Shown piece after piece: positions 4,278 through 29,472 of a DNA stretch of 29,472 nt. A program made the position numbers and the translations under genes. Source of the stretch: a virus; IMG/VR virus record IMGVR_UViG_3300030451_000792, positions 1-29,472 of that record. The stretch is one strand, 5' to 3'. The notes under the pieces are model-generated. The model was given only the letters and a program-made list of their open reading frames with translations, made no database searches and was not told where the DNA came from. Positions within the stretch are counted from its first letter, which is position 1, and each line of letters opens with the position of its first letter.

Positions 4278-4438
4278 AAACATATACAATAATGGTTATT
4301 TTACAAAAAGATTATAAAGTTAAAAACATTCAACAAGCAAATAAAATGTTTCAACAAGATAAATCGTTGTTTCATCCTAAATGGAAAATTAAGAATGAAA
4401 TGTTTGTAAAAAAAGAAGCTAAACAAGAAGAAGAATGA
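4274..4438 (+). CDS. Small basic protein of unknown function
   Basis: A 54-residue gene running from ATG 4274, overlapping the previous stop (ATGA), to TGA 4438, which overlaps the next start (ATGA). The product starts MKTYTIMVILQKDYKVKNIQ, a beta strand followed by a basic helix, and ends in a Lys/Glu-rich tail (KKEAKQEEE). It contains FHPKWKIKNEMF in the middle. No family is recognised. The double ATGA coupling and the absence of any other frame here are the main evidence that it is coding. Confidence 0.6.
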   Translation: MKTYTIMVILQKDYKVKNIQQANKMFQQDKSLFHPKWKIKNEMFVKKEAKQEEE

Positions 4439-4854
4439 TTGATCTTCTTTTAGGTTGTAGTTTATTATCTCAGGTTAGTTTCACTATAAATGAAATTAAC
4501 GACATTCCTCTAGTGGTTGAGCAATGTGAGATAGTAGAAGAGGTGCAAGAGTGGATTCCATTAACAAATATCCATTTTAAACAGGAATCCGCTTTTGCAT
4601 TAGTTGTAATGTATTGTGAGAGTTCAGGATATTCAAAGGCAACAGGGATAAACAAAGACGGATCAAAAGATCAGGGTTTGTTTCAATTCAATGAACGTAC
4701 AGAACGCTGGTTAGAAAAAGATATATATAAAAGGGATCTTGATATGTATGATCCTGAAACAAACGTAAAAGCTGCTAGATGGTTGTCTTATTATGATGGT
4801 TGGCATCATTGGAATAGTTCCAAACATTGTTGGGGTAGATATGAGTCTTACTAG
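4435..4854 (+). CDS. Lysozyme-like lytic transglycosylase
   Basis: This 139-residue protein has a lysozyme-like transglycosylase core: ALVVMYCESSGYSKATG (catalytic Glu62 expected in CESSG), then DGSKDQGLFQFNERT (about 75-89) and ARWLSYYDGWHHWNSSKHCWG at the C terminus. This is the E-S-x-G ... G-L-F-Q-x-N order of soluble lytic transglycosylases and Rpf-type enzymes, which cut the MurNAc-GlcNAc bond of peptidoglycan. The N-terminal 15 residues (IDLLLGCSLLSQVSF) are hydrophobic and could be a weak export signal or lipobox-like segment (LLGC). It is the only clear muralytic enzyme outside the virion genes, so it may be the endolysin although it lies 2.6 kb from the holin. Start ATG 4435 is coupled by ATGA. 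Confidence 0.78.
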   Translation: MIDLLLGCSLLSQVSFTINEINDIPLVVEQCEIVEEVQEWIPLTNIHFKQESAFALVVMYCESSGYSKATGINKDGSKDQGLFQFNERTERWLEKDIYKRDLDMYDPETNVKAARWLSYYDGWHHWNSSKHCWGRYESY

Positions 4855-5029
4855 ATATTTATGTTTGGAGTGTGATATGTGGAAGAAAAGAGGAACAATT
4901 TTTAGAGATTTTAAATTTATTTGTTCTGATTGTGATATTACATATTGGATAGAAACAAAAAAATGGTCTAACGATGGGAGAGTATATTATGCAAATATCA
5001 GTACAAAAAGTACCGAAGAATGTTTATAG
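4841..5029 (+). CDS. com: Com-like zinc-binding translational activator of the Mom-like gene
   Basis: ATG 4841 lies inside the end of the transglycosylase gene and gives a 62-residue protein. It carries CLEC and CSDC separated by 16 residues (C-x2-C-x16-C-x2-C). From memory, phage Mu Com is also 62 residues with the same cysteine spacing, and its gene also overlaps the start of mom. Mu Com is a zinc protein that binds the mom mRNA near its start and opens a structure to allow translation. Here the mom-like start (4989) is inside this gene with a 41-nt overlap, so the architecture matches. Outside the cysteines similarity is weak, so an unrelated zinc ribbon is possible. The neighbour makes the Com reading much more likely. 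Confidence 0.65.
   Translation: MSLTRYLCLECDMWKKRGTIFRDFKFICSDCDITYWIETKKWSNDGRVYYANISTKSTEECL
4976..4998 (+). promoter_or_regulatory. Ribosome-binding region of the Mom-like gene with a small hairpin
   Basis: GGGAGAG (4976-4982) is the ribosome-binding site for ATG 4989. ATATT (4984-4988) and AATAT (4994-4998) can pair, placing the start codon in the loop, and GTAC/GTAC flanks an A5 loop just downstream (about 5000-5012). In Mu, the mom start is held in an inhibitory structure relieved by Com. The pairing here is AU-only and weak, so the functional analogy is a suggestion. Confidence 0.35.
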
Positions 5030-5693
5030 TGATTGGATTTTAAATAAACATTACGCAAAAAGAATGTGTCAAGTATCTCATGCTTACGGTCTTTATATTG
5101 ATGGAATAATATCAGGTGTTGTTACCTATGGAATGTCTCCATCCGCTACATTAGCTGCATCAATAGCAGGAGAGGAATATAAATCTATTGTTTATGAACT
5201 TAATAGGTTAATTACAGAAAATAACCTACCAAAAAACGTTTTATCTACTTTTGTATCTAAAACATTTAAGTTATTACCAAAACCATCAATTATTGTAAGT
5301 TTCGCTGATCCAAATAGTGGCCATCATGGGTATATTTATCAGGCAACTAATTTTATTTACACAGGGATCTCATCAAACACAACTCAATATCGCTATCCTG
5401 ATGGAAAAGAGTTTCATTTTAAAAATTTTAGACATAAGAAACATAGTTCATCTTTTAAAAGACAATTAGGAAAACCTGATGTAACTAATCAAGACATAAT
5501 AGATTTTTATGATCTACAAAAAGTAAATATTCAGGGTAAACATAGATATATATACATCATTGGAAGTAAAACAGAAAAAAAGAACATTATGAAAAATTTT
5601 CGTTTAGAGATACTAAAATATCCTAAAGGAGAAAATAAAAATTACGAGGTTGATTTTGACGAAATGGATAAACAACTAAATTTATTCGGTTAG
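4989..5693 (+). CDS. mom: Mom-like DNA adenine hypermodification protein
   Basis: Starting at ATG 4989, chosen for the GGGAGAG site 6 nt upstream, the product has 234 residues, close to Mu Mom. Landmarks are HYAKRMCQVSHAYGLY (21-36), ELNRLITENNLPKN (70-83), and SFADPNSGHHGYIYQATN followed by FIYTG (104-126). This last block is the signature I recognise from the Mom family. Mom is a GNAT-fold enzyme that converts adenines in phage DNA to N6-carbamoylmethyl-adenine, which blocks many host restriction enzymes. The C terminus is a basic region plus tail (FRHKKHSSSFKRQ). It overlaps the Com-like gene by 41 nt. A related acyltransferase-fold protein with another substrate is the alternative, but the signature block and neighbour both favour Mom. 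Confidence 0.82.
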   Translation: MQISVQKVPKNVYSDWILNKHYAKRMCQVSHAYGLYIDGIISGVVTYGMSPSATLAASIAGEEYKSIVYELNRLITENNLPKNVLSTFVSKTFKLLPKPSIIVSFADPNSGHHGYIYQATNFIYTGISSNTTQYRYPDGKEFHFKNFRHKKHSSSFKRQLGKPDVTNQDIIDFYDLQKVNIQGKHRYIYIIGSKTEKKNIMKNFRLEILKYPKGENKNYEVDFDEMDKQLNLFG

Positions 5694-5703
5694 GGAGGTT
5701 GAA

Positions 5704-5952
5704 ATGTCGGATAGAAGTAAAATTAGAGAAATATTGATAAGAAATCAAGATACTTGGGTATGTAGTTCTGTGTTCTTACGTGAACACTTTATAAAAGACT
5801 ATGCACAAAGGATCTCAGAGATTAGAACTGAAAAAGTAAATGGTTTTAATGTTGATATACAGGGCAAAACTTGTGATATGCACAATCACAAACAACACAT
5901 GTATAAATTATCAATAATCGCACCAAATTATGAACGCAGTACCTTATTCTGA
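5704..5952 (+). CDS. Small winged-helix-like protein
   Basis: An 82-residue protein beginning directly after the recurrent GGAGGTTGAAA site (5694-5704). MSDRSKIREILIRNQDTWVC, then FLREHFIKDYAQRISEIRTEKVNGFNVDI, then a His-rich strand HNHKQHMYKLS fits a three-helix winged helix with the recognition helix near YAQRISEIRTE. Domains of this kind are common in small phage proteins and in the specificity parts of regulators; the individual role is unknown. The ribosome-binding site identical to those of other early genes suggests shared expression. It overlaps the next gene by 23 nt. DNA binding is inferred from the helix pattern only. Confidence 0.6.
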   Translation: MSDRSKIREILIRNQDTWVCSSVFLREHFIKDYAQRISEIRTEKVNGFNVDIQGKTCDMHNHKQHMYKLSIIAPNYERSTLF

Positions 5953-6728: not shown

Positions 6729-6767
6729 ATGGACTGTTGTGGACAGGGCTGTTGCTCAGGAGGTTAA
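6729..6767 (+). CDS. Possible 12-residue Cys-rich leader peptide
   Basis: ATG 6729 has an excellent ribosome-binding site (GGAGG at 6719-6723, 5 nt away) and encodes MDCCGQGCCSGG before TAA 6765-6767. The much larger gene in another frame starts within it at TTG 6737, which is too far from that site. AGGAGG (6758-6763) at the end of the mini-frame could support reinitiation. It may be a translated leader controlling the large gene, perhaps sensing Cys or translation rate, or a chance frame. Confidence 0.35.
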   Translation: MDCCGQGCCSGG

Positions 6768-8914
6768 GTAGATTAGTATTTGTATTATGTTTGATATGCC
6801 CACAAATAGCTTTTGCAGATCACGTTCCTACACAACCACCATATAATCAATCGATTGAATTAGATACATCCACAGGAGATCTAACTATTGGAATATATTC
6901 TTCTGATGGTTTTGAAGATAGTCCACCTGAAAAATATACAATATTTTTTACCATTGGAGATACTTCTATAAACACAACTACATCGTTTTGTGTTTCAACA
7001 TCTTTTGGACACGGTAATAATTTATCGTGGCAGTATTATGTTTTTTCTTTAGAAGATTTACAGTATTACTTTCAAAATCCTTATGGAACTTTTAGAACAC
7101 AGATAAGATCCGATAATGATACAGATAATAGTTATAGTACATTAACAACTGAACAAACAATAAATATACCAAATCAACTTCCATTCGTGAATTTAGGAAA
7201 TTGGTCTGCTCCGTCTAATACTTGTAACGACACAAGTACAACTACAACTACGACTTCTTCAACAACTACAACAAGTTCTACAACAACTTCAACAAGTACT
7301 ACTACCACAACAACAACTACTACTACTTTGCCTCCTACTACTACAACATCTTCAACTACTACCACAACAACAACTACTACTACAACGTTGCCTCCAACAG
7401 AGGAAGAATTAAACTTTATCGAAACCGGTATATATGAAACTAATAAAGAAAGATCGGATAGGGAGGAATACGAAAGATTTGTTGCTGCACAAAATTGGGA
7501 AAGAGAAAAAAATCAACAGGAAACAGGTTATTGGGAGTTAGATTCAGAAAGAAGAGAAAGAGAGGCAAATGAAGTTGTAATTGTTGAAATAGATGGAATG
7601 GAGACAGAATATACTCAACAAGACGTACAAGATGGAACAGTAGATCGTGATAAACAAAGATCAAGAAATGAATCTGATTATGGCTGTTATATGACGGATG
7701 AACAAATTGAACGCGGAGATTGTATAATAGAAATAGATGAGGAAGAATACGATACCGAAGAAGAGTTTTTTGAGGATGATTCTATGGTATCTGAATTGGA
7801 GTTTGATGATGAAGATAAAGATTTTGAAGATGAATTTGAAGAACTTACAGAAGAAGAGATCATCGAACTTGAAAAACAAATGGAGATCGATGAAAAGATA
7901 CTTGAACTTGAAGAAGAGATTGAAATACTTGAATTTGAAACTGAAGAGGAATTTGAGGAATTTGTTGAAACAATACTCGAAGTAGAAGAGTTTTTAGAAG
8001 AATTTGAAGATTTTGAGGAAGAAATCATCATAATTGAAGTTCCTGAAGATATTGAAATAATTATTGAAGATCAGAAAATTGATGAAGAAATAGTCATAGT
8101 TGAGGAAATAGAAGAGGAGATCTTAGAAGAAATACTTCCGGAAGAGATAACTAAAGAAGAGTTTGAAGAGATTAAAGAAAAAGATATAGAGGATCTTACT
8201 GAAGAAGAACAAGAAATAATAGTTGATTTTGTAGAAGAGATTATTGAAGAAGTTGTCAATATTGAGGTTTTAGAAGAAGAAATAGAGATACTTGAAGAAG
8301 AAGAGTTAGAACAACTAACAGTAGAAGAACAAGAGATCTACGAAGAAGAGTTAGAAGAAAAAGTAGAAGAGTTTGTTGAAACATTGGAAACTGAGGAACT
8401 TGTAACAGTTGTTGAACAGGTATCAGAGATTGGAGTTCAATCCTTAGAATCTGCTGATATACAAACAATAAAGGTTGTTCAGGCAGTAGTTACTGAGATC
8501 ACAGATACAGAAACAGTTGAAGAATTAACAGAGGAACAGGTAGAAACAGTTGCAGAGGTTTTAGGTTTTGAAGAAACTGAAGATGTAAAAATAATATCTG
8601 AGATCTTAGAAGATGAAGATAATACCGTTGTAAAAGAAGCAGTTGAAGAGTATGTCGAAAGAAGTATTGAGAACGGAAAAGATTCTTTGATGCCATACAC
8701 TTTGGCAGATAGTATCGTGGAAGTGCAGGTTGAGCAGTTTCTCGAAAATCCTATTCAAAGTTTGGTAAATGTAGATATATCAGATATAACTATTAAGGAT
8801 ATTAATTCAGGAATGACACAAGATCAGAGAGAAAAATCTCAGGAGGTTGTGATTCCAACAATTTTGGTAAGAATAGCATCTATGTTTAGTATGGCTTACA
8901 GGAGAGAAATTTGA
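6737..8914 (+). CDS. Exported Thr-rich, highly acidic 725-residue protein
   Basis: The frame opens at TTG 6737. Residues 8-27 look like a signal peptide: basic RRLSR, a hydrophobic core, and a cleavage site after IAFA before Asp28. A beta-rich domain (about 28-160) follows, then about 55 Thr/Ser residues with two LPP breaks (166-220), a charged segment rich in E/R, and from about 325 to 560 an extreme run of Glu, Ile, Leu and Val, probably long helices or coiled coil. A less biased C-terminal region ends at IASMFSMAYRREI. Thr-rich LPP linkers are typical of surface proteins of acidimicrobial actinobacteria. A phage-encoded exported protein of this size between early and packaging genes is unusual. 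It may alter the host surface or be a fibre; I do not recognise a family. Confidence 0.8.
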   Translation: MWTGLLLRRLSRLVFVLCLICPQIAFADHVPTQPPYNQSIELDTSTGDLTIGIYSSDGFEDSPPEKYTIFFTIGDTSINTTTSFCVSTSFGHGNNLSWQYYVFSLEDLQYYFQNPYGTFRTQIRSDNDTDNSYSTLTTEQTINIPNQLPFVNLGNWSAPSNTCNDTSTTTTTTSSTTTTSSTTTSTSTTTTTTTTTTLPPTTTTSSTTTTTTTTTTTLPPTEEELNFIETGIYETNKERSDREEYERFVAAQNWEREKNQQETGYWELDSERREREANEVVIVEIDGMETEYTQQDVQDGTVDRDKQRSRNESDYGCYMTDEQIERGDCIIEIDEEEYDTEEEFFEDDSMVSELEFDDEDKDFEDEFEELTEEEIIELEKQMEIDEKILELEEEIEILEFETEEEFEEFVETILEVEEFLEEFEDFEEEIIIIEVPEDIEIIIEDQKIDEEIVIVEEIEEEILEEILPEEITKEEFEEIKEKDIEDLTEEEQEIIVDFVEEIIEEVVNIEVLEEEIEILEEEELEQLTVEEQEIYEEELEEKVEEFVETLETEELVTVVEQVSEIGVQSLESADIQTIKVVQAVVTEITDTETVEELTEEQVETVAEVLGFEETEDVKIISEILEDEDNTVVKEAVEEYVERSIENGKDSLMPYTLADSIVEVQVEQFLENPIQSLVNVDISDITIKDINSGMTQDQREKSQEVVIPTILVRIASMFSMAYRREI
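7231..7396. repeat. Low-complexity ACT/ACA repeat encoding the Thr-rich linker
   Basis: Nearly all codons are ACT, ACA, ACC or TCT/TCA/AGT. A unit of about 60 bp ending in TTGCCTCC is repeated, with TTG at 7328 and 7388. Such tracts expand and contract by slippage, so linker length is probably variable between relatives. Confidence 0.85.
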
Positions 8915-10902: not shown

Positions 10903-13900
10903 ATGGGTTTGACAGATAATATAAGAGATTTTTTTAGACAACAGGGAGATCAACAAACAAAAGGATATGGAAATTTTCCTAATAATCAAGTAGTTTTTCC
11001 ATTCAATAGTGATATAGGTTTCTTTAGTGGAGTCGATCAAGTAAGTCCGGAGGGTAACTCTGCAGCTCTTGCTTGTCTTAATGTTTTAGGTACTGCTTTC
11101 TCTGAAGCTCCTATTGAAGTATATGAAATGTCTGATAATGGGGAACAGATGATAATTAATCATCCTGCTACTCAGTTACTAAGAAAACCTAGTCCGTATA
11201 TGTCCGGTAATTTACTTAATCAATACATTATTACTTCTATGAGTGTTGCTGGAGATGCATTTATATTGAAACTTCGTAACGAGGCAGGTGGGGTTGTTCA
11301 GTTGTATCCTTTGATTCCGGATCAAGTAGATGTTAAGGGTACAAGTGAAGAACTCATCACACATTACGAATACAGACAAAAAGGACAAAGATTACATATT
11401 CCTCGTGAAGATATGATCCATATCAGAGAAAAGATAGATCCTAGAAATCACAGAAGAGGATTATCTCCTTTACGATCAGTAATGGTAGAAATACTTGGAG
11501 ACGCAGCAGCATCACAGATGGCATCTGCTCTTGTAAAGAATATGGGTGTTCCGGGCGTAGTTATATCTCCTAAGAATGATTTATCTATGACGAAAGAAGA
11601 ATCAGAGAATATAGCAGAAGTATTTGGAAGAAGATTTGGAGGAGAGAATAGAGGTCGTCCATTAGTTATATCCGGTGGAGAAGTTGATATTCAAACTCTT
11701 TCTTTTTCTCCGAAAGATTTAGAAATAGGAAAACTAAGACACGTAAACGAAGAAAGAATATCTGCAGTTTTAGGTGTACCATCAATTCTTGCAGGTCTTG
11801 GATCAGGTCTTTCATCAAGTACTTATAATAACGTATCAGAACTCAGAAACTTTTTTACAGAACAAAAACTTATACCTATGTGGAAGAATGTTGCATCAGA
11901 CTTCACAAATCAATTATTATTAGAAGATTTTACAGACGATCAGGGTTTTGTTATGAAGTATGATCTATCAGATGTAAGAGCTTTACAACAAGATGAACAA
12001 ATGGAAATGGATAAGATTGTTAAAGGTTTACAAGCAGGTTTCATCACAGTAGCAGAGGCAAGAAAAGCAACAGGTTTCAATGCAGATGATCCTAGTATGG
12101 ATGTTTATCTCAGGGGTATTCAACAAGTCGAAGTGCCAACAGACGGCTCAGATGTAAGAGTATTTACAGGTCAAACAGCAACCGGTAATCCTGATTTTGA
12201 TCGTTTAATGGAAGATAGTAAGTCTAAAAAAAAAGACGAAGATGAGTTTGACGATACATTCGTAATCTTAGAAGATGGAGAGAGAGTTCATATCTCTTGG
12301 GTTGAAGCTAAGACAATTAAAAAAGAAGATGGTAAGTATTGTGTCTATTCAAAGAATGGTAAAAGAAAGTTTGGTTGTTACTCCACAAGAAAAGAAGCTG
12401 AACGAAGATTAAGACAGATAGAACGATATAAAGCAATCTTTGGAGATCTTAAAGTAGGAGATTCAGTTTCATGGAGTATAAATAAAGATCCTGATCCTCC
12501 ATCAACAATACACGGTGTAATAGAATCACTTAATCAAAATGAAGAAACTGCAAACGTAAGAGTATGGGCTATCTTAGAAGATGGATCACACGAAAGAACA
12601 GATCGATCAGTAACAGTAGAAGTATCTAAGTTACAAGTAATAAAACCAATAGATCAAGAAGAAAAGAAACTATCTAATCGAATAGAAAAGATCTTAAAAG
12701 ATAAAGTAAAAGAACATAATGATTCAGATCCAAAGTACAGAGTTACGATAGGAATGTTAAGAAAGGTTTTTGAAAGAGGAGTAGGTGCTTATAGAACTAA
12801 TCCGGGCTCAGTTAGAGGTAATGTAAGATCTGCAGATCAATGGGCATTAGCACGGTGCAATGCGTTCCTAAAAGCATTAAAGACAGGTAAGTTTCCTAGA
12901 TCTCCATTCGATACAGATTTACTTCCTGATAATCATCCAAACGCAAGTGATGAGAAGTATGGAAAACCAAAGAAACCTAAGAAACCAAAAAAGAAACCTA
13001 AAAAGAAACCAAAGTACACAAAACAGATAGATCAAGTTCCTGATTACATACAAAGGAATGCACAAAGAGGATTAGATAATTTAGAGTTTGCAGGAGACGG
13101 ATTACAAGATGCAACAATATCTGCAGCTAGAAGAATGGCGAATGGAGAAATATCTGAAAGAAAAGTTCGTTTGATGGCTGCATGGTTTCAGCGACATGAA
13201 TCAGATTTAGATTCACAAGCAGCAGATGACTTCCTATCAGGAGAGGGAGAAATGACAGGCGGTCAGGTGGCATGGTTATTGTGGGGCGGAGACATATCAA
13301 AAGAAAACAGAATGAGAGCACAAGAATGGGCTCAAAGACAAGTAGATAAATTAGAAGCTGAGAAAGATCTAAGTTTTGAGTTTTATGGATGGCAAGATCC
13401 AACAGTTAAGTTTCTAGGTTTACCAAACATAAAGAAGATAGAAACAGAAGAAGAAAAACAAATGTATTGGAAAGAAATAGACAATCTTAGACGTAGGTGG
13501 GAACAAACACTAGAGACTCTTTATGCAAAAGAATTGAACAGACAGAAGAGAGAGATTGCAAAAGAAATAAGAAAGAGTTCTGATCTAAACAATATGGAAT
13601 CAAGAATTGAAAAGGTAATAGATAGTACAAATTTTGAAAGACAGTTTTTACCATTGTATTACTCTTTGAGTGATGATTTCTCTGTAAGAACTTACGATAG
13701 TTTGTTTCCAAAGAAAGAAGAAAGAAAGGAAGCTGATCCTGTTGATCTAGGTGTCTCAATAGATGAAGAAGAGACAGTAAGAACAGTATTTACTACATTA
13801 GGAACATTGTTGCCAACACAAGGCAGAACAATAAACAATATCATAGCAGAGGGTTTTTATAGACGACAAAGAGAAGTACCTCCTGCTGTTGGCTCTTTAT

Positions 13901-14412
13901 TTCAAGATGGACAAGCAGCAGGATTCTTACAAGATAATGCTAAGTCTGTAATGAAAGATCTAAACAATACTACAAAGAGAAGAATATCAACTATCGTTGA
14001 AAAAAGTTTGAAAGAATTAGAGGATCTAGGAATAGTCAATCCTGTTGCAGGCACAGTTGAGGGAGATAAGTTCTTTGATAACTTAGCAAGAAAGATAAAT
14101 GTTGAGTTAGGTGGACAATCTCTTAAAAGATCAAGAACAATAGCTAGAACAGAGGTTTTAAAAGCTAGTAGTTGGTCTCAACAAAGAGCAGCTAAATCAA
14201 CAGGTAAAGTATTAGAAAAAGAATGGGTTTCACAAAGAGATGAACTTGTGAGGGAATCACATTTTGAATTAGACAATCAAAGAGTTCCGGCTGATAGTTT
14301 TTATCTGTATAATGGAATCAAGTTAGACTTTCCGGGCGATCCAAAAGCTCCGGCTGGTCTTGTAGTAAATTGTAGATGCACAGAGGCATTTGTAGAGGTA
14401 ATAGATGAATAA
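10903..14412 (+). CDS. Portal-MuF fusion protein (portal, accessory head domains, SPP1 gp7/Mu gpF-like)
   Basis: One 1169-residue frame joins functions that are usually separate. Residues 1 to about 425 are an HK97-type portal (LACLNVLGTAFSEAPIEVYE, GVPSILAG). About 478-512 is a Cys/Lys/Arg-rich helix (KYCVYSKNGKRKFGCYSTRK). About 520-590 is a small barrel-like segment (VGDSVSW ... HERTDRS). About 600-675 contains WALARCNAFLKALKTGKFPR. A Lys-Pro linker (687-706) leads to a helical domain with VAWLLWGG (about 708-820). The rest is an SPP1 gp7/Mu gpF minor head domain ending RSRTIARTEVLKAS ... NCRC (1156-1159). The portal ring is the DNA gateway; MuF proteins sit inside or at the vertex and can be ejected. 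The fusion fixes their ratio at 1:1. I see no frameshift or internal stop. Confidence 0.88.
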   Translation: MGLTDNIRDFFRQQGDQQTKGYGNFPNNQVVFPFNSDIGFFSGVDQVSPEGNSAALACLNVLGTAFSEAPIEVYEMSDNGEQMIINHPATQLLRKPSPYMSGNLLNQYIITSMSVAGDAFILKLRNEAGGVVQLYPLIPDQVDVKGTSEELITHYEYRQKGQRLHIPREDMIHIREKIDPRNHRRGLSPLRSVMVEILGDAAASQMASALVKNMGVPGVVISPKNDLSMTKEESENIAEVFGRRFGGENRGRPLVISGGEVDIQTLSFSPKDLEIGKLRHVNEERISAVLGVPSILAGLGSGLSSSTYNNVSELRNFFTEQKLIPMWKNVASDFTNQLLLEDFTDDQGFVMKYDLSDVRALQQDEQMEMDKIVKGLQAGFITVAEARKATGFNADDPSMDVYLRGIQQVEVPTDGSDVRVFTGQTATGNPDFDRLMEDSKSKKKDEDEFDDTFVILEDGERVHISWVEAKTIKKEDGKYCVYSKNGKRKFGCYSTRKEAERRLRQIERYKAIFGDLKVGDSVSWSINKDPDPPSTIHGVIESLNQNEETANVRVWAILEDGSHERTDRSVTVEVSKLQVIKPIDQEEKKLSNRIEKILKDKVKEHNDSDPKYRVTIGMLRKVFERGVGAYRTNPGSVRGNVRSADQWALARCNAFLKALKTGKFPRSPFDTDLLPDNHPNASDEKYGKPKKPKKPKKKPKKKPKYTKQIDQVPDYIQRNAQRGLDNLEFAGDGLQDATISAARRMANGEISERKVRLMAAWFQRHESDLDSQAADDFLSGEGEMTGGQVAWLLWGGDISKENRMRAQEWAQRQVDKLEAEKDLSFEFYGWQDPTVKFLGLPNIKKIETEEEKQMYWKEIDNLRRRWEQTLETLYAKELNRQKREIAKEIRKSSDLNNMESRIEKVIDSTNFERQFLPLYYSLSDDFSVRTYDSLFPKKEERKEADPVDLGVSIDEEETVRTVFTTLGTLLPTQGRTINNIIAEGFYRRQREVPPAVGSLFQDGQAAGFLQDNAKSVMKDLNNTTKRRISTIVEKSLKELEDLGIVNPVAGTVEGDKFFDNLARKINVELGGQSLKRSRTIARTEVLKASSWSQQRAAKSTGKVLEKEWVSQRDELVRESHFELDNQRVPADSFYLYNGIKLDFPGDPKAPAGLVVNCRCTEAFVEVIDE

Positions 14413-18715: not shown

Positions 18716-18960
18716 AAATAAAAATATTAATCGGAAGTAACTTTCCGGATGGAAAAGAAGAAAAGAGAGTAGAGGCAGGGGACGTTCTTGAAGTCGATGA
18801 CAAAATCGCTAAAAGTTTGATAAAGAATAAAGCTGCAGTAAAATTTGATGATGATAAAAAATCTAAAAAAACTAAAAAAAGAGCTAGAAATGAAGATGGG
18901 AGTTTTAAAGCAGACGATCCTACAACTCCTGAAAACGAAGCTTGGGAGGTAACTGAATAA
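18712..18960 (+). CDS. Small charged protein between terminator and tail-tube genes
   Basis: Eighty-two residues, overlapping both neighbours (ATGA at the start, TAATG at the end). The first 45 residues (MKIKILIGSNFPDGKEEKRV, then GDVLEVDDKIAKSLIKNKAA) form a small domain with a G-D-V-x-E-V-D-D turn followed by a helix, seen in small neck/tail-region proteins of actinophages. The rest is a disordered Lys/Asp/Glu-rich tail (KKSKKTKKRARNEDGSFKAD). A structural or assembly role is inferred from position. I cannot assign a named family. Confidence 0.6.
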   Translation: MKIKILIGSNFPDGKEEKRVEAGDVLEVDDKIAKSLIKNKAAVKFDDDKKSKKTKKRARNEDGSFKADDPTTPENEAWEVTE

Positions 18961-19679
18961 TGCCAACATTTAATCATGGTAAAGACGCAGTTGTTCTTCT
19001 TGATAATACTAATTTGAGTACAACTCTTACGGATCTTTCTGTTTCACTTACAGCTGATGTAAGCGAAACAAGTACGTTTTCAAGTTCTTCTAAGAGCTAC
19101 GTAAGTGGCTTAAAGGACGGAAATGCTACGGCGAGCGGTTACTTTGAAACATCAAGTCCGGATTCAGACGCAGAGTATTTAGCTCAATTAGGTGGATCAG
19201 GATCTGCTTTCTCAATTGCTCCGAGCGGATATACAAGAGGAAATCCTACTACTCTAGGATCTGTTATTGAAACATCATACGACAGATCAGCGGATATAGC
19301 AGGAATAGTGGCTGTAGCCGTAGCTTTCCAATTTGATGCAGATACTTTTGATGGTAAGAGTTTAGTTGCTCCAGCAGCTTTTACTACTACTTCAACTGAA
19401 ACCTCAGTTGATTTTGGAGCAGCAGGTACAAATGGAGGTGGAGCAGCTATTCACGTAACAGCGGCTAGTGGAACTTCTCCTACATTAGATGCCAAAATAC
19501 AAACAAGTGCAGATAATGCGTCGTTTTCTGATTACATTACATTTAGTCAATTAACGACAACAGGATCTGAATTTAAAACAAATACAAGTAATCCAGCAAG
19601 ATACGCAAGAGCGGTACTAACAATAGGAGGATCTTCTCCTAGTTTTACTGTTGCGATCAGTTTTGGACATGGAAGATAA
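18960..19679 (+). CDS. Tail tube (major tail) protein, long paralogue
   Basis: A 239-residue protein. Its first 130 residues (MPTFNHGKDAVVLLDNTNLS ... ADVSETSTFSSSSKSYVSGL ... SYDRSADIAGIVAVAVAFQF) are clearly homologous to the next gene product, sharing MPTF-HGK, ADVSE, VSGLKDG, and SYDR-DIAG in the same order. This is a tail-tube domain. From about residue 135 it has an extra Ser/Thr/Gly-rich beta domain (ETSVDFGAAGTNGGGAAIHV ... FTVAISFGHGR), probably an exposed Ig-like decoration. Having two tube paralogues, one with a surface domain, resembles lambda gpV and phages that make two lengths of tube protein, but here from two genes. Confidence 0.78.
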   Translation: MPTFNHGKDAVVLLDNTNLSTTLTDLSVSLTADVSETSTFSSSSKSYVSGLKDGNATASGYFETSSPDSDAEYLAQLGGSGSAFSIAPSGYTRGNPTTLGSVIETSYDRSADIAGIVAVAVAFQFDADTFDGKSLVAPAAFTTTSTETSVDFGAAGTNGGGAAIHVTAASGTSPTLDAKIQTSADNASFSDYITFSQLTTTGSEFKTNTSNPARYARAVLTIGGSSPSFTVAISFGHGR

Positions 19680-19688
19680 AGGAGAATA

Positions 19689-20096
19689 ATGCCAACATTT
19701 ACACACGGAAAGAATGCAGCATTCAAGTTCGATGATTCAGGTGGTACAATAAGAGATATATCAAATGTTCTTACAGATGTAGCAGTATCAAGAACAGCGG
19801 ATGTTAGCGAGGTAAGCGCTTTCAGTAATTCTAGTAAAGCGTTCGTGAGTGGCTTAAAGGATGGCACAATAACATTAACAGGTACATTCGATGCAACTGT
19901 TAACGGTTATTTTACCGGTATTCTTGGATCTGAAGTCGATTTCGAGTTCTATCCAATAGGAACTACCGGAGGTAATCCAAAAGCTAGTGGAAAAGCAATA
20001 TTGACTTCTTACGATAGAACTCCTGATATAGCAGGAGCCGTAGGATTCAGTGCAGCTTTTCAAATTACAGGCGACGTTACTGAGGGAACTGCTTAG
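19689..20096 (+). CDS. Tail tube (major tail) protein, short paralogue
   Basis: A 135-residue paralogue of the preceding gene lacking the C-terminal domain. It keeps MPTFTHGKNAAFKFDDSG, SRTADVSEVSAFSNSSKAFV, SGLKDGTITLTGTFDA, and the C-terminal SYDRTPDIAGAVGFSAAFQI. GGAGAAT stands upstream. It is the size of a minimal tube subunit, so it may form the bulk of the tube while the longer paralogue decorates it or forms a special ring, or the reverse. The two genes are 9 nt apart and plainly arose by duplication. Relative abundance cannot be read from the sequence. Confidence 0.75.
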   Translation: MPTFTHGKNAAFKFDDSGGTIRDISNVLTDVAVSRTADVSEVSAFSNSSKAFVSGLKDGTITLTGTFDATVNGYFTGILGSEVDFEFYPIGTTGGNPKASGKAILTSYDRTPDIAGAVGFSAAFQITGDVTEGTA

Positions 20097-25113: not shown

Positions 25114-25710
25114 ATGTCTTATATAGGTACTCAACCAAATGATGTAAAAAAGAATACAGGTTTATATACACCTAGCGAAATATTACAACTAACTAAAGAC
25201 GGTAGTTGGGGTGGTAGCTTAGAACTTATTGAGGAACAAACTTTTTCTAGTTCAAGTGGTGTAGATTTTACTTCTATTCAGGAAAATAAATATGATGTTC
25301 ATTTATTGCAATACAATATAGATTTATCAAGTTATAGACAATTATATTTAAGATTTTATGAAAGTGGAGTACTAGAAACTGCAAGTGTTTATCAATATGG
25401 ACAACAATTTGGTTCTACTTCAGGAAGTTTTTCTGAACAAAATAGCACAGGTGCAACACAAATATTTTTAAATTTTACAAATCAACATCAAAATCAAGGA
25501 TATATATATTTATACAATTTAGGAAATTCTAGCAAATATTCTTATACTACTCATCATAGTTTTGTAGATGATAGTGGTAATAGTAGGTTTTTCTTTGAGT
25601 TTGGTGGTGGAGTGTTACCACAAACAAGTACAGTTGATGGAATTAGATTTTTTCCACAAGCAGATACTTTTGATGGAAGTGCAAAACTTTATGGAGTAAA
25701 AAAGATATGA
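25114..25710 (+). CDS. Putative receptor-binding / fibre protein A1
   Basis: A 198-residue protein with an N-terminal attachment-like part (MSYIGTQPNDVKKNTGLYTP then SEILQLTKDGSWGG) shared with A2, followed by the core common to all six array members. Core landmarks are a strand-turn IQENKYDVHLLQYNIDL, GYIYLYNLGNSSKYSYT, VDGIRFFPQADTF and the end LYGVKKI. The fold is likely a beta-sandwich of lectin-like type. The N terminus probably docks onto the tail and recruits B and C partners. AAGGAC is a weak ribosome-binding site, and the end overlaps B1 by ATGA. Receptor binding is inference from place and multiplicity. Confidence 0.7.
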   Translation: MSYIGTQPNDVKKNTGLYTPSEILQLTKDGSWGGSLELIEEQTFSSSSGVDFTSIQENKYDVHLLQYNIDLSSYRQLYLRFYESGVLETASVYQYGQQFGSTSGSFSEQNSTGATQIFLNFTNQHQNQGYIYLYNLGNSSKYSYTTHHSFVDDSGNSRFFFEFGGGVLPQTSTVDGIRFFPQADTFDGSAKLYGVKKI

Positions 25711-26249
25711 GTGCTTTAAGATTAATTAATGAAACTACTGCTAGTTCTGTTGCAAGTGTTGAAATAACAGATGTCTTTAATGCAGATTTTGATATTTATC
25801 AAATAACTTTTAATAATTTAGTGCAAGCTACTTCAACTGCAACTTTTTCTTATCTTAGATTTTTAAATTCTAGTGGTAGTGAAATAAGTAGTTCAAGTTA
25901 TGATTATGCACTTTTAGTAACAAGAGCAGGTGGCTCATTTCAAGAAAGTAGGGCAACTAATCAATCTACTTTATGGCACTCAATTTATAATTGTGTAAAT
26001 GAAAGTGATTTTGGTGGTGCAAATATGTATATATTTAATCCATATTCAAATAGTTCTTATACTTTTATTATTAATCAATCATTTTTTAGATATGATGGAA
26101 CTTCAGGTGGAACTGTAGGTCATGAAGGTTATAAACAAATATCAGTTTTAAAAACCACAGATAGAATTGAGGGAATAAAATTTTATAATAGTACAGGAAA
26201 TTTTGCTAATTTTGATTGCAAGATTTATGGATTGAGAGTAGATAGTTAA
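25707..26249 (+). CDS. Putative receptor-binding / fibre protein B1
   Basis: A 180-residue array member without the docking segment. It starts MSALRLINETTASSVASVEI, and the core shows FDIYQITFNNL, SSYDYALLVTRAGGSFQES, MYIFNPYSNSSYTFIINQSF, RIEGIKFYNSTGNF, and the terminal CKIYGLRVDS. Its counterpart is B2 (27396), which shares the N-[PA]-Y-[NS]-S-S-S-Y-T-F signature. It is coupled to A1 (ATGA) and C1 (TAATG), consistent with stoichiometric synthesis of a complex. AT content is higher than in the core genes, and GATC is absent. Beta-sandwich fold and receptor role are inferred. Confidence 0.68.
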   Translation: MSALRLINETTASSVASVEITDVFNADFDIYQITFNNLVQATSTATFSYLRFLNSSGSEISSSSYDYALLVTRAGGSFQESRATNQSTLWHSIYNCVNESDFGGANMYIFNPYSNSSYTFIINQSFFRYDGTSGGTVGHEGYKQISVLKTTDRIEGIKFYNSTGNFANFDCKIYGLRVDS

Positions 26250-26758
26250 TGGCTGGTAGTTTAGTACAAGTAGCAACAAATACAGTATCAAGTGCAGTTA
26301 GTTCTGTAACTTTAACAGGCATAGATAGTGATGATGTTTATATGGTTGCAGTTAGTGGATTAAGCCCAGCTACATCACAAGTTTTAAGAGGTAGATTAAC
26401 TGAAAGTGGAACAGAAAATACAACTGCTAATTATGATTTTGCAGCTAAAGGTTTAAAAACAAGTGCAGCTTTTGAAAACAATTCTGGTGCTAATTATAGT
26501 TATTTCAACATTAGTGATAGTTATGTAAATGCTACAACAGAAAAAAACTTTAATGGAATATTTTATATTTACAATGCTAATAACAGTTCTGAATATACAT
26601 TTATCACTTTTGAAACATCACAGTTTGCAGGTAGTGAGCTTTATGGAAATCAAGGTGGTGGTGTATTTACAGTTACAAGTTCTGTAGATGGAATTTATTT
26701 TTACATAAGTGGAATAAATATTGATAGTGGAACATTTACATTGTATAAGGTGGTGTAA
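26249..26758 (+). CDS. Putative receptor-binding / fibre protein C1
   Basis: A 169-residue member, closest to C2: both begin MAGSL and share SVTLTGIDS, TESGT-NTTANYD, YIYNANNSSEYTF or its variant, QGG--FT--S-VDG, and SG-FTLY. Identity with C2 looks close to half by eye. It ends FTLYKVV, where most members have LYG. It starts on the TAATG overlap with B1, and the A2 gene follows after 2 nt. GATC is absent. Structural role as for A1 and B1. Confidence 0.68.
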   Translation: MAGSLVQVATNTVSSAVSSVTLTGIDSDDVYMVAVSGLSPATSQVLRGRLTESGTENTTANYDFAAKGLKTSAAFENNSGANYSYFNISDSYVNATTEKNFNGIFYIYNANNSSEYTFITFETSQFAGSELYGNQGGGVFTVTSSVDGIYFYISGINIDSGTFTLYKVV

Positions 26759-26760
26759 TT

Positions 26761-27396
26761 ATGAGTAGTGAATTTGGATATATACCAGAAAGCCCAGAAC
26801 AAAGTTTTGGAAATAATAAAGGGATTTTTACACCTACTGATATTTATGATCTAACAAGAGCAGATAAATATACTAACTATGGACAATTAGAATTAATTGA
26901 AACTAAAGATTTAACAGGCACAACACCAACTGCAATAGATTTTACAGATTTAAAAGAAGATATTTATAATGTGCATTTTCTTACATACAACAATTTACAA
27001 ATTACAGGAAGTGATACTATAAGAGCAAGAGTATCTAATGATGGTGGTAGCACTTATGAAAGCACAAGCCAATATGATAGTGCTATTCAAAGAATGACAA
27101 CAGGGGGTACTTTTGGTGAAAGCACTAGACAGAATTTTCAATCTTATGACAGAATTGGACAAAACGCAGTAAATGAACCTTATAACGGATACATCTACAT
27201 TTACAACGCAGGGGATAGTGCAAAATTTACTTTTTTAACTGCACACGTTACAAATGAAAATGATGGTTTTAGATTTGGAAGTGGTGTTTATCACGTTGCT
27301 GAAACTGTTAATGCTTTTAGATTATTCTTGACTTCAAATACATTTAAAGATGTAGGAAGTGTTGTATCTCTATATGGAATAAAGGAATACTCATAA
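26761..27396 (+). CDS. Putative receptor-binding / fibre protein A2
   Basis: A 211-residue member carrying the docking-type N terminus: NNKGIFTPTDIYDLTRADKY, aligned with A1's NTGLYTPSEILQLTKDGS. The core follows: DLKEDIYNVHFLTYNNLQI, STSQYDSAIQRMTTGGTFGE, GYIYIYNAGDSAKFTFLTAH, then VNAFRLFLTSNTF and the end LYGIKEYS. Compared with A1 it is 13 residues longer. It contains the only GATC (26848) in the whole array. It overlaps B2 by TAATG. It opens the second triple. Confidence 0.7.
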   Translation: MSSEFGYIPESPEQSFGNNKGIFTPTDIYDLTRADKYTNYGQLELIETKDLTGTTPTAIDFTDLKEDIYNVHFLTYNNLQITGSDTIRARVSNDGGSTYESTSQYDSAIQRMTTGGTFGESTRQNFQSYDRIGQNAVNEPYNGYIYIYNAGDSAKFTFLTAHVTNENDGFRFGSGVYHVAETVNAFRLFLTSNTFKDVGSVVSLYGIKEYS

Positions 27397-27926
27397 TGGC
27401 TACTAATTTACAATTTATAAATCAAACAGAAATAACAAGTGGTGTAACAACAGTAAATGTAGATAATGTTTTTTCAGATAATTATGATGTTTATTATTGT
27501 CAAGTTGTAGGTGTGTTTCACGATACAAATGTTTCAAATGGTATTGAGGGTTATAGATTAATTGATAATAGTGGAAGTGTAGTAACACAAAATGAATATG
27601 ATAGTGCAGGTTTAAATATAAAAACAAATGATACATTTAGTGAAACAACATTTACTAATTCAGGGCAATTATATGCAGGTTTATATACTGACCAACTTTC
27701 AGATGGACAAGCAAGTGCAAGTTTTTATATTATAAATCCTTATAATTCAAGTTCTTATACTTTTATGCTTTCACAAGCTATGGGAGCAAACTCATCAGGA
27801 AATTGGGGAAGTAAATTTATAGCAGTACATAAATCAGCAGAAACTATAAGAGGTTTTCAACTATATGAAAGTAATGTTGCAAGAACTTTTGGTGGTGGAA
27901 CAATAAATGTATATGGAGTTAAATGA
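27396..27926 (+). CDS. Putative receptor-binding / fibre protein B2
   Basis: A 176-residue member corresponding to B1: MATNLQFINQTEITSGVTTV, then NVFSDNYDVYYCQVVGV, NEYDSAGLNIKTNDTFSETT, FYIINPYNSSSYTFMLSQAM, IRGFQLYESNVARTFGGG and the terminal VYGVK. It keeps the NPY-SSSYTF block found in B1. It ends in TGA overlapping the C2 start (TGATG). Differences from B1 are concentrated in loops between strands, as expected for receptor-contact loops. Confidence 0.68.
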   Translation: MATNLQFINQTEITSGVTTVNVDNVFSDNYDVYYCQVVGVFHDTNVSNGIEGYRLIDNSGSVVTQNEYDSAGLNIKTNDTFSETTFTNSGQLYAGLYTDQLSDGQASASFYIINPYNSSSYTFMLSQAMGANSSGNWGSKFIAVHKSAETIRGFQLYESNVARTFGGGTINVYGVK

Positions 27927-28447
27927 TGGCAGGTAGCTTAATAAAAATAGCAGAAACAACAGTTAGTTCAGCAACTGCAAGTGTAACTTTAACAGGTATT
28001 GATAGCACTTATGATGTTTATAAATTTGTTATAAATAATGCAACACCTGATACTGATAATGTGTCTAGTCAATTTAGGGTTACTGAAAGTGGAACACCGA
28101 ACACAACTGCTAATTATGATAGGGCAGTTGTAACATTAAAATCTAATACTTCTTTTTCTGATGACGCACTAACTAATCAAACTTTTTTTTACGCAGATAC
28201 TCAAAATTCAGGAACAAGTACAGGGGAACAACTTAACTCTATACAATACATTTTTAATGCTAATAACAGTAGTGAATTTACTTTTATGACAACTGAAGTT
28301 ACGCATTTTCAAGTTTCAGCAGTTCTAATGGGGCAACAGGGTGGATATGTATTTACTTCTGCTAGTGCAGTTGACGGTGTGCAGTTTTTTTATTCAAGTG
28401 GAAACATAGCAAGTGGAACATTTACATTATATGGTTTAAAGAAGTAA
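27926..28447 (+). CDS. Putative receptor-binding / fibre protein C2
   Basis: I start at ATG 27926 (MAGSLIKIAE) to match C1, though ATG 27923 lies one codon upstream. The product has 173 residues with SVTLTGIDSTYDVYKFVINN, TESGTPNTTANYDRAVVTLK, FNANNSSEFTFMTTEVTHFQ, SAVDGVQFFYSSGNIASGTF and the end LYGLKK. It is the last gene of the array. GATC reappears immediately after it, in the next gene. Beta-sandwich fold and adsorption role are inferred as for the others. Confidence 0.68.
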   Translation: MAGSLIKIAETTVSSATASVTLTGIDSTYDVYKFVINNATPDTDNVSSQFRVTESGTPNTTANYDRAVVTLKSNTSFSDDALTNQTFFYADTQNSGTSTGEQLNSIQYIFNANNSSEFTFMTTEVTHFQVSAVLMGQQGGYVFTSASAVDGVQFFYSSGNIASGTFTLYGLKK

Positions 28448-29087: not shown

Positions 29088-29472
29088 TTTAGAAAACTTC
29101 AAAGAGTCTGTTTATGACAGGTCTCCTTATAAAAAGAAAAAACGTGTACATCCACAGGGATTTGAGCCATCAGGTTACTTTTCAGAGGAAAAACAATCAG
29201 GAGAGATCGTCTCTTCTCCACAAAAATCAAACAATATAGATTGGAATGAACAATTAGAATCATACTTTGGTAAAGATGCACATAAATATCAAGTTGTTCC
29301 AGGCACTGCAGAAATACGATTTTGGGATAATAATATGGGATCAGGCAACGTAGAAAGATTCTATTATTTTAAAGCAAAGATCGTATCTTCTAAGAAATTC
29401 ATGGAAGATGAAGATTTTAAAAAACTACTAAATCAAACTAAGAAAATTAAGATTCCTAAGAAAAAAACTAAA
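29071..29472 (+). CDS. Metallophosphoesterase, N-terminal part (continues at base 1)
   Basis: ATG 29071 overlaps the end of the putative helix-turn-helix gene. The frame has no stop before the end of the window, and its last 32 codons repeat the start of the window. Joined, the gene runs 29071-29373 then 1-918. The N-terminal 110 residues (MDSSNSLENFKESVYDRSPY, then a basic KKKKRVHPQGFEPSGYFS, NNIDWNEQLESYFG, and beta-rich VVPGTAEIRFWDNN with FYYFKAKIVSSK) precede the catalytic domain. They may bind DNA or a partner, and this part is not a known domain to me. Confidence 0.88.
   Translation, partial: MDSSNSLENFKESVYDRSPYKKKKRVHPQGFEPSGYFSEEKQSGEIVSSPQKSNNIDWNEQLESYFGKDAHKYQVVPGTAEIRFWDNNMGSGNVERFYYFKAKIVSSKKFMEDEDFKKLLNQTKKIKIPKKKTK
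29374..29471. repeat. Terminal overlap repeat, copy 2
   Basis: This is identical to bases 1-98; the final base 29472 (A) differs from base 99 (G). It indicates that the genome is closed on itself at this point. Confidence 0.9.

What the first reader, a model, noticed from the sequence alone, without database searches (positions are those of the whole stretch)
4841..5693. A com-mom-like operon in a small marine-type siphophage
A 62-residue C-x2-C-x16-C-x2-C protein overlaps the start of a protein with the Mom signature (SFADPNSGHHGYIYQATN). From memory, Mu Com has the same length, cysteine spacing and overlap with mom. Sequence outside the cysteines differs. If right, translational control of Mom by a zinc protein is conserved far beyond Mu-like phages, and this phage carries modified adenines.
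Basis: partly seen in the sequence, partly recalled or inferred. Interest (0 to 1): 0.85.

Follow-up and report, generated by a model that had tools for sequence, protein, structure and literature searches.

The report
Mom gene with overlapping zinc-finger gene
A marine-type phage carries a real relative of phage Mu's DNA-disguising enzyme Mom, and in front of it a small zinc-finger gene that is always found with mom; that small protein resembles Mu's Com in layout but not in sequence, so a shared control mechanism is plausible but unproven.

Summary
Window 4989-5693 encodes a Mom-family enzyme (Pfam PF25680 E=2e-37; PHROG 1384 E=1.5e-56; AlphaFold pLDDT 87, top PDB match Mu Mom 8bv8). Window 4841-5029 encodes a 62-aa C-x2-C-x16-C-x2-C protein under purifying selection that overlaps mom by 41 nt. 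Mu Com is also 62 aa with x16 spacing and overlaps mom by 50 nt.

Com membership fails: no Pfam Com hit, profile-profile probability 2-4%, CPRC and LL signatures absent, and neither a sequestering hairpin nor the Com RNA motif at the mom start. The length match is partly chance (relatives are 57-62 aa).

The pairing is still meaningful. All 16 other known copies of the zinc-finger gene sit on mom. Searches seeded with the lysozyme and terminase genes never found it without mom; related phages lack both, or carry a DNA methyltransferase in its place. But the gene is confined to this phage group, and 77 other Mom loci essentially lack one, so com-mom conservation far beyond Mu is not supported.

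Best reading: a Mom cassette with its own zinc-ribbon accessory, probably acting on mom expression by convergence on Com's role. Modified adenines are inferred, not shown.

The parts
4841..5029 (+). zf: 62-aa C4 zinc-ribbon-like protein (C8, C11, C28, C31), not assignable to Com
   Evidence: 27 invariant columns in 16 sequences; purifying selection; no family over cut-off; Com profile best score -0.6 bits; hhalign probability 4%
4989..5693 (+). mom-like gene, 234 aa, Mom/GNAT family DNA adenine modification enzyme; residues identical to Mu Mom include H21, Y22, R73, S86, S104, D107, Y117
4976..4991 (+). mom initiation region: Shine-Dalgarno GGGAGAG and ATG 4989, inside the zf coding sequence
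   Evidence: conserved in 13 zf-mom loci
4989..5029 (+). 41-nt overlap of zf 3' end with mom 5' end (29 nt in most relatives; 50 nt in Mu com-mom)
4435..4854 (+). upstream lysozyme-like (SLT) gene, left border of the cassette slot; overlaps zf start
   Evidence: (PF01464 E=1e-9)
5704..5952 (+). conserved small gene, right border of the cassette slot; follows lysozyme directly in relatives that lack zf and mom

Best explanation
A two-gene DNA-modification cassette sits between the lysozyme gene and a small conserved gene. The second gene encodes a Mom-family enzyme that most likely converts adenines of the phage DNA to the bulky Mom form (N6-carbamoylmethyl-adenine in Mu), shielding it from host restriction. 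The first gene encodes a small zinc-ribbon protein dedicated to mom. It is not a detectable Com homologue. Its reading frame carries the mom Shine-Dalgarno and start, so its translation runs through, and probably opens or couples to, mom initiation. The protein most likely adjusts mom expression, for example by binding the overlapping mRNA, and so plays a Com-like role by convergence. Shown: Mom family membership, zf coding, overlap, co-occurrence. Inferred: the modification itself, translational coupling, RNA binding by zf.
For: Mom: and conserved active-site residues (8bv8 is the inactive S124A mutant of Mu Mom and that Ser is S86 here). zf real. zf tied to mom: all 16 IMG/VR copies overlap mom. 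With lysozyme or TerS as query, 8 contigs have zf+mom, 0 have zf alone, and 6 run lysozyme straight into the next gene with neither. zf and mom are present together on two separate backbones of the lysozyme/g5930/TerS tree, and a nearly complete relative without mom also lacks zf (L260). Overlap and strong Shine-Dalgarno conserved.
Against: Only about two independent changes of zf on the tree, so the co-occurrence is not statistically strong. Close relatives keep a Mom 84-88% identical without zf. No RNA structure or accessibility signal at the mom start. The zf structure prediction is uninformative (pLDDT 46). Small C4 ribbons are common in these phages.
Confidence: 0.5

Rival explanations
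1. True com-mom operon: zf is a diverged homologue of Mu Com that melts an inhibitory hairpin at the mom start.
For: Same Cys spacing, near-same length and overlap, same position before mom; the best profile alignment does put the cysteines in register.
Against: hhalign probability 2-4%, no Pfam Com hit in any of 16 sequences or in the whole genome. No LL...CPRC signature. Initiation codon not sequestered as in Mu (unpaired 0.35 against 0.00). No CC(N)2-3GAG Com motif within 3 kb of the locus (motif from PMC6483171). RNAalifold finds no conserved structure.
Confidence: 0.1
2. zf is a protein partner of Mom (DNA-binding or targeting subunit) and does not regulate translation.
For: Strict dependence of zf on mom; zinc ribbons often bind nucleic acid; adjacent overlapping genes often make complexes (general knowledge).
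Against: Mom of close relatives persists without such a subunit, and most other Mom loci lack one; no structural evidence.
Confidence: 0.18
3. Hitchhiker: zf is an unrelated small zinc-ribbon protein (for example an RNA polymerase or sigma-factor binder like Gin/CsfB, or a transposase-type finger) whose overlap with mom reflects genome compaction.
For: Best PDB profile hit is anti-sigma factor Gin (5n7y, E=0.013, motif C..CD..K.RG..FIC.DC); zf-Tnp_2 reached in 16 of 16 below cut-off; short overlaps are common in these phages; L050 has another small C4 gene before lysozyme.
Against: zf is never seen without mom, including in mom-less relatives of the same gene order. Gin is reached by only 3 of 16 members at E 0.28 or worse.
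Confidence: 0.22

Closest known systems
Mu Mom (8bv8; Pfam PF25680; PHROG 1384)
   Same: Family profile, GNAT-like fold, conserved HY, ELNR, S86 (Mu S124), SFAD and Y-Q-A motifs
   Different: 28% identity over the core; ATG start with strong Shine-Dalgarno instead of a GTG start in a hairpin
Mu Com (PF10122; PHROG 13819) and the com-mom operon
   Same: 62-aa C4 protein, C-x2-C-x16-C-x2-C, encoded directly upstream and overlapping mom
   Different: No sequence or profile similarity, no LL/CPRC signature, no start-codon hairpin, no Com RNA motif; zf is restricted to one phage group. Com itself sits before DNA methyltransferases (50 of 80 fetched loci) more often than before mom (22 of 80)
Gin/CsfB anti-sigma-G factor (PF10764)
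   Same: Weak motif match around the four cysteines
   Different: Below any significance cut-off; no sigma-factor context
Methyltransferase-mom pairs of close relatives (L004-L007)
   Same: Same slot, same Mom (84-88% identity), gene ending at or overlapping the mom start
   Different: PHROG 757 or N6/N4-type DNA methyltransferase in place of zf

Membership tests
Mom (PF25680) | Profile score over curated cut-off | tested here: met
   129 bits against cut-off 27.1
Mom (PF25680) | GNAT-like Mom fold | tested here: met
   pLDDT 87; Foldseek top hit 8bv8 E=7e-12, TM 0.63-0.67
Mom (PF25680) | Active-site residues conserved with Mu Mom | tested here: met
   H21/Y22/R73/S86/S104/D107 aligned with Mu and at least 97% conserved; 8bv8 names the S124A mutant inactive
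Mom (PF25680) | Makes carbamoylmethyl-adenine in phage DNA | not testable with these tools
   needs nucleoside mass spectrometry
Com (PF10122) | Profile match | tested here: not met
   0 of 16 members at E<=5; own-genome family search empty; Com HMM best score -0.6 bits, hhalign probability 4%
Com (PF10122) | Four-Cys finger C-x2-C-x15/16/18-C-x2-C near the N-terminus | tested here: met
   x16 in all zf; Com 15, 16 or 18
Com (PF10122) | Signature LL and I-x-CPRC | tested here: not met
Com (PF10122) | Encoded directly upstream of and overlapping a DNA modification gene | tested here: met
Com (PF10122) | Inhibitory hairpin at mom start with Com RNA motif | tested here: not met
   the RNA-structure test has limited power
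[quoted passage not shown]
   needs EMSA and reporter assay
Gin/CsfB (PF10764) | Profile match | tested here: not met
   3 of 16 members at E 0.28 or worse; absent in own-genome search

The most novel reading that the evidence does not exclude
An independently evolved, non-homologous zinc-ribbon regulator of a Mom enzyme: translational control of mom by a small overlapping C4 protein arose at least twice, in Mu-like phages and in this marine siphophage group.
Probability: 0.35. Interest if true: 0.65.

Novelty: new variant of a known kind. Interest (0 to 1): 0.42.

Why it matters
Mu controls Mom tightly through Com. A second, unrelated small zinc protein that comes and goes with mom would suggest that the need for such control is general, and would give a new, simple candidate RNA-binding switch to test. 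The methyltransferase replacements in close relatives make the comparison direct, because nearly the same Mom occurs with and without zf.

Tried and rejected
Rejected that zf is a spurious ORF. Rejected Com homology by BLASTP, Pfam, PHROG, NCBIfam and two profile-profile comparisons. Rejected Gin homology as below significance. Sought RNA structure at the mom start by single-sequence folding, consensus folding and accessibility: nothing above background; single-sequence z-scores also miss the Mu region, although there the start codon itself is fully paired. AlphaFold of zf was uninformative. No zf in genome contigs or in phage records. An apparent 18-aa zf fragment in L271 is most likely the mom N-terminus read in the other frame. 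Small C4 genes elsewhere in Mom loci (L027, L072, L127 and others) are not at the mom start or not similar. No local promoter or terminator signal above chance.

Full report
Observation. The window is a complete circularly permuted phage genome of about 29.4 kb (98-nt end repeat). The reported features are present: a 62-aa C-x2-C-x16-C-x2-C ORF at 4841-5029 and an ORF starting at 4989 (or 4974) and ending at 5693, overlapping by 41 nt. The mom start at 4989 has a good Shine-Dalgarno, GGGAGAG, largely conserved in relatives. The zf frame is under purifying selection and its four cysteines never vary.

Mom. The second protein hits Pfam PF25680 Mom at 2e-37 and PHROG 1384 at 1.5e-56, Mu Mom in the PDB at 2e-9 and Mu Mom directly by BLASTP. 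Its AlphaFold model is confident (87) and its first Foldseek match is Mu Mom 8bv8, followed by GNAT acetyltransferases. Residues shared with Mu and invariant or nearly so in 30 relatives include H21, Y22, R73, S86, S104 and D107; S86 aligns with the serine whose S124A change is described as inactive in 8bv8. Mom relatives are common: 282 phage records and at least several hundred viral contigs. A Mom gene in a phage is therefore a new member of a known family.

Is zf Com? Mu Com is 62 aa with the same spacing and overlaps mom by 50 nt. But BLASTP finds no alignment, hhalign gives 1.7% with six Com sequences and 4% with 51, no Pfam Com match occurs in 16 sequences or in the genome, and the Com signature residues are missing. 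Known Com proteins as diverged as those of B3 or Moraxella phages are still found from Mu Com by simple tblastn. The Mu mechanism, as described in PMC6483171, needs a start site hidden in RNA structure and a CC(N)2-3GAG loop motif. In Mu the GTG is fully paired by prediction; here the start is no more hidden than random sequence, consensus folding gives no structure, and the motif does not occur near the locus. Membership is therefore not met, although acting like Com is not excluded.

Does the pairing mean anything? zf occurs in 16 other viral contigs, all with mom overlapping its 3' end. Since these share gene order, I searched with the lysozyme and the small terminase genes instead. The slot between lysozyme and the next gene then shows zf+mom (8 contigs), methyltransferase+mom (2), methyltransferase alone (L254), or nothing, with lysozyme running directly into the next gene (L221, L239-L241, L259, L260); zf alone was never seen. 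Whole-record searches confirm that L260 (27.8 kb) and others have neither. On a tree of neighbouring proteins zf changes only about twice, each time with mom, so the support is consistent but not strong statistically.

Limits of the pairing. Four close relatives have Mom 84-88% identical with no zf in the contig; a PHROG 757 methyltransferase (L004, L005, L007) or an N6/N4 methyltransferase (L006) precedes mom, ending at or overlapping its start. Two of those contigs are short fragments. Among 77 Mom loci outside the group, only L027 has a comparable small C4 gene touching the start, and it is not similar. Com-mom control conserved far beyond Mu is thus not what the data show.

Interpretation. 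The likeliest reading is a modification cassette in which a small zinc-ribbon protein, unrelated to Com as far as can be seen, serves the expression of mom through the overlapping message. Translational coupling through the overlap would alone explain why the gene before mom in this slot ends at the mom start, whether zf or methyltransferase. It is notable that true Com genes also precede DNA methyltransferases more often than mom in the fetched loci (50 against 22 of 80). Modified adenines, coupling and RNA binding by zf remain inferences.

Noticed in passing
1-98 and 29374-29471: Exact direct repeat at both ends: the record is a complete circularly permuted genome of about 29.4 kb.
   Followed up: partly
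10903-14412: One 1169-aa ORF joins a portal protein (N-terminal part) and a head morphogenesis domain (C-terminal part), usually separate genes.
   Followed up: no
6737-8914: 725-aa ORF with a long Thr/Ser run and an extremely acidic Glu-rich repeat region; no family found.
   Followed up: no
25114-28447: Row of related small genes, repeated at about 1.7 kb spacing, after the tail genes; looks like a duplicated tail-fibre or adhesin set.
   Followed up: no
18960-20096: Two adjacent tail-protein-like paralogues sharing their start region (81% over 36 nt).
   Followed up: no
L004, L005, L006, L007, L254, L249: The slot around lysozyme is a hot spot for DNA modification genes: PHROG 757, N6/N4-type and PHROG 359 methyltransferases swap with or accompany zf-mom.
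   Followed up: partly
L133-L212: Genuine Com genes in viral contigs precede DNA methyltransferases (50 of 80) more often than mom (22 of 80).
   Followed up: partly
L050:4351-4596: Another small C4 zinc-finger gene directly before lysozyme, unrelated to zf.
   Followed up: no
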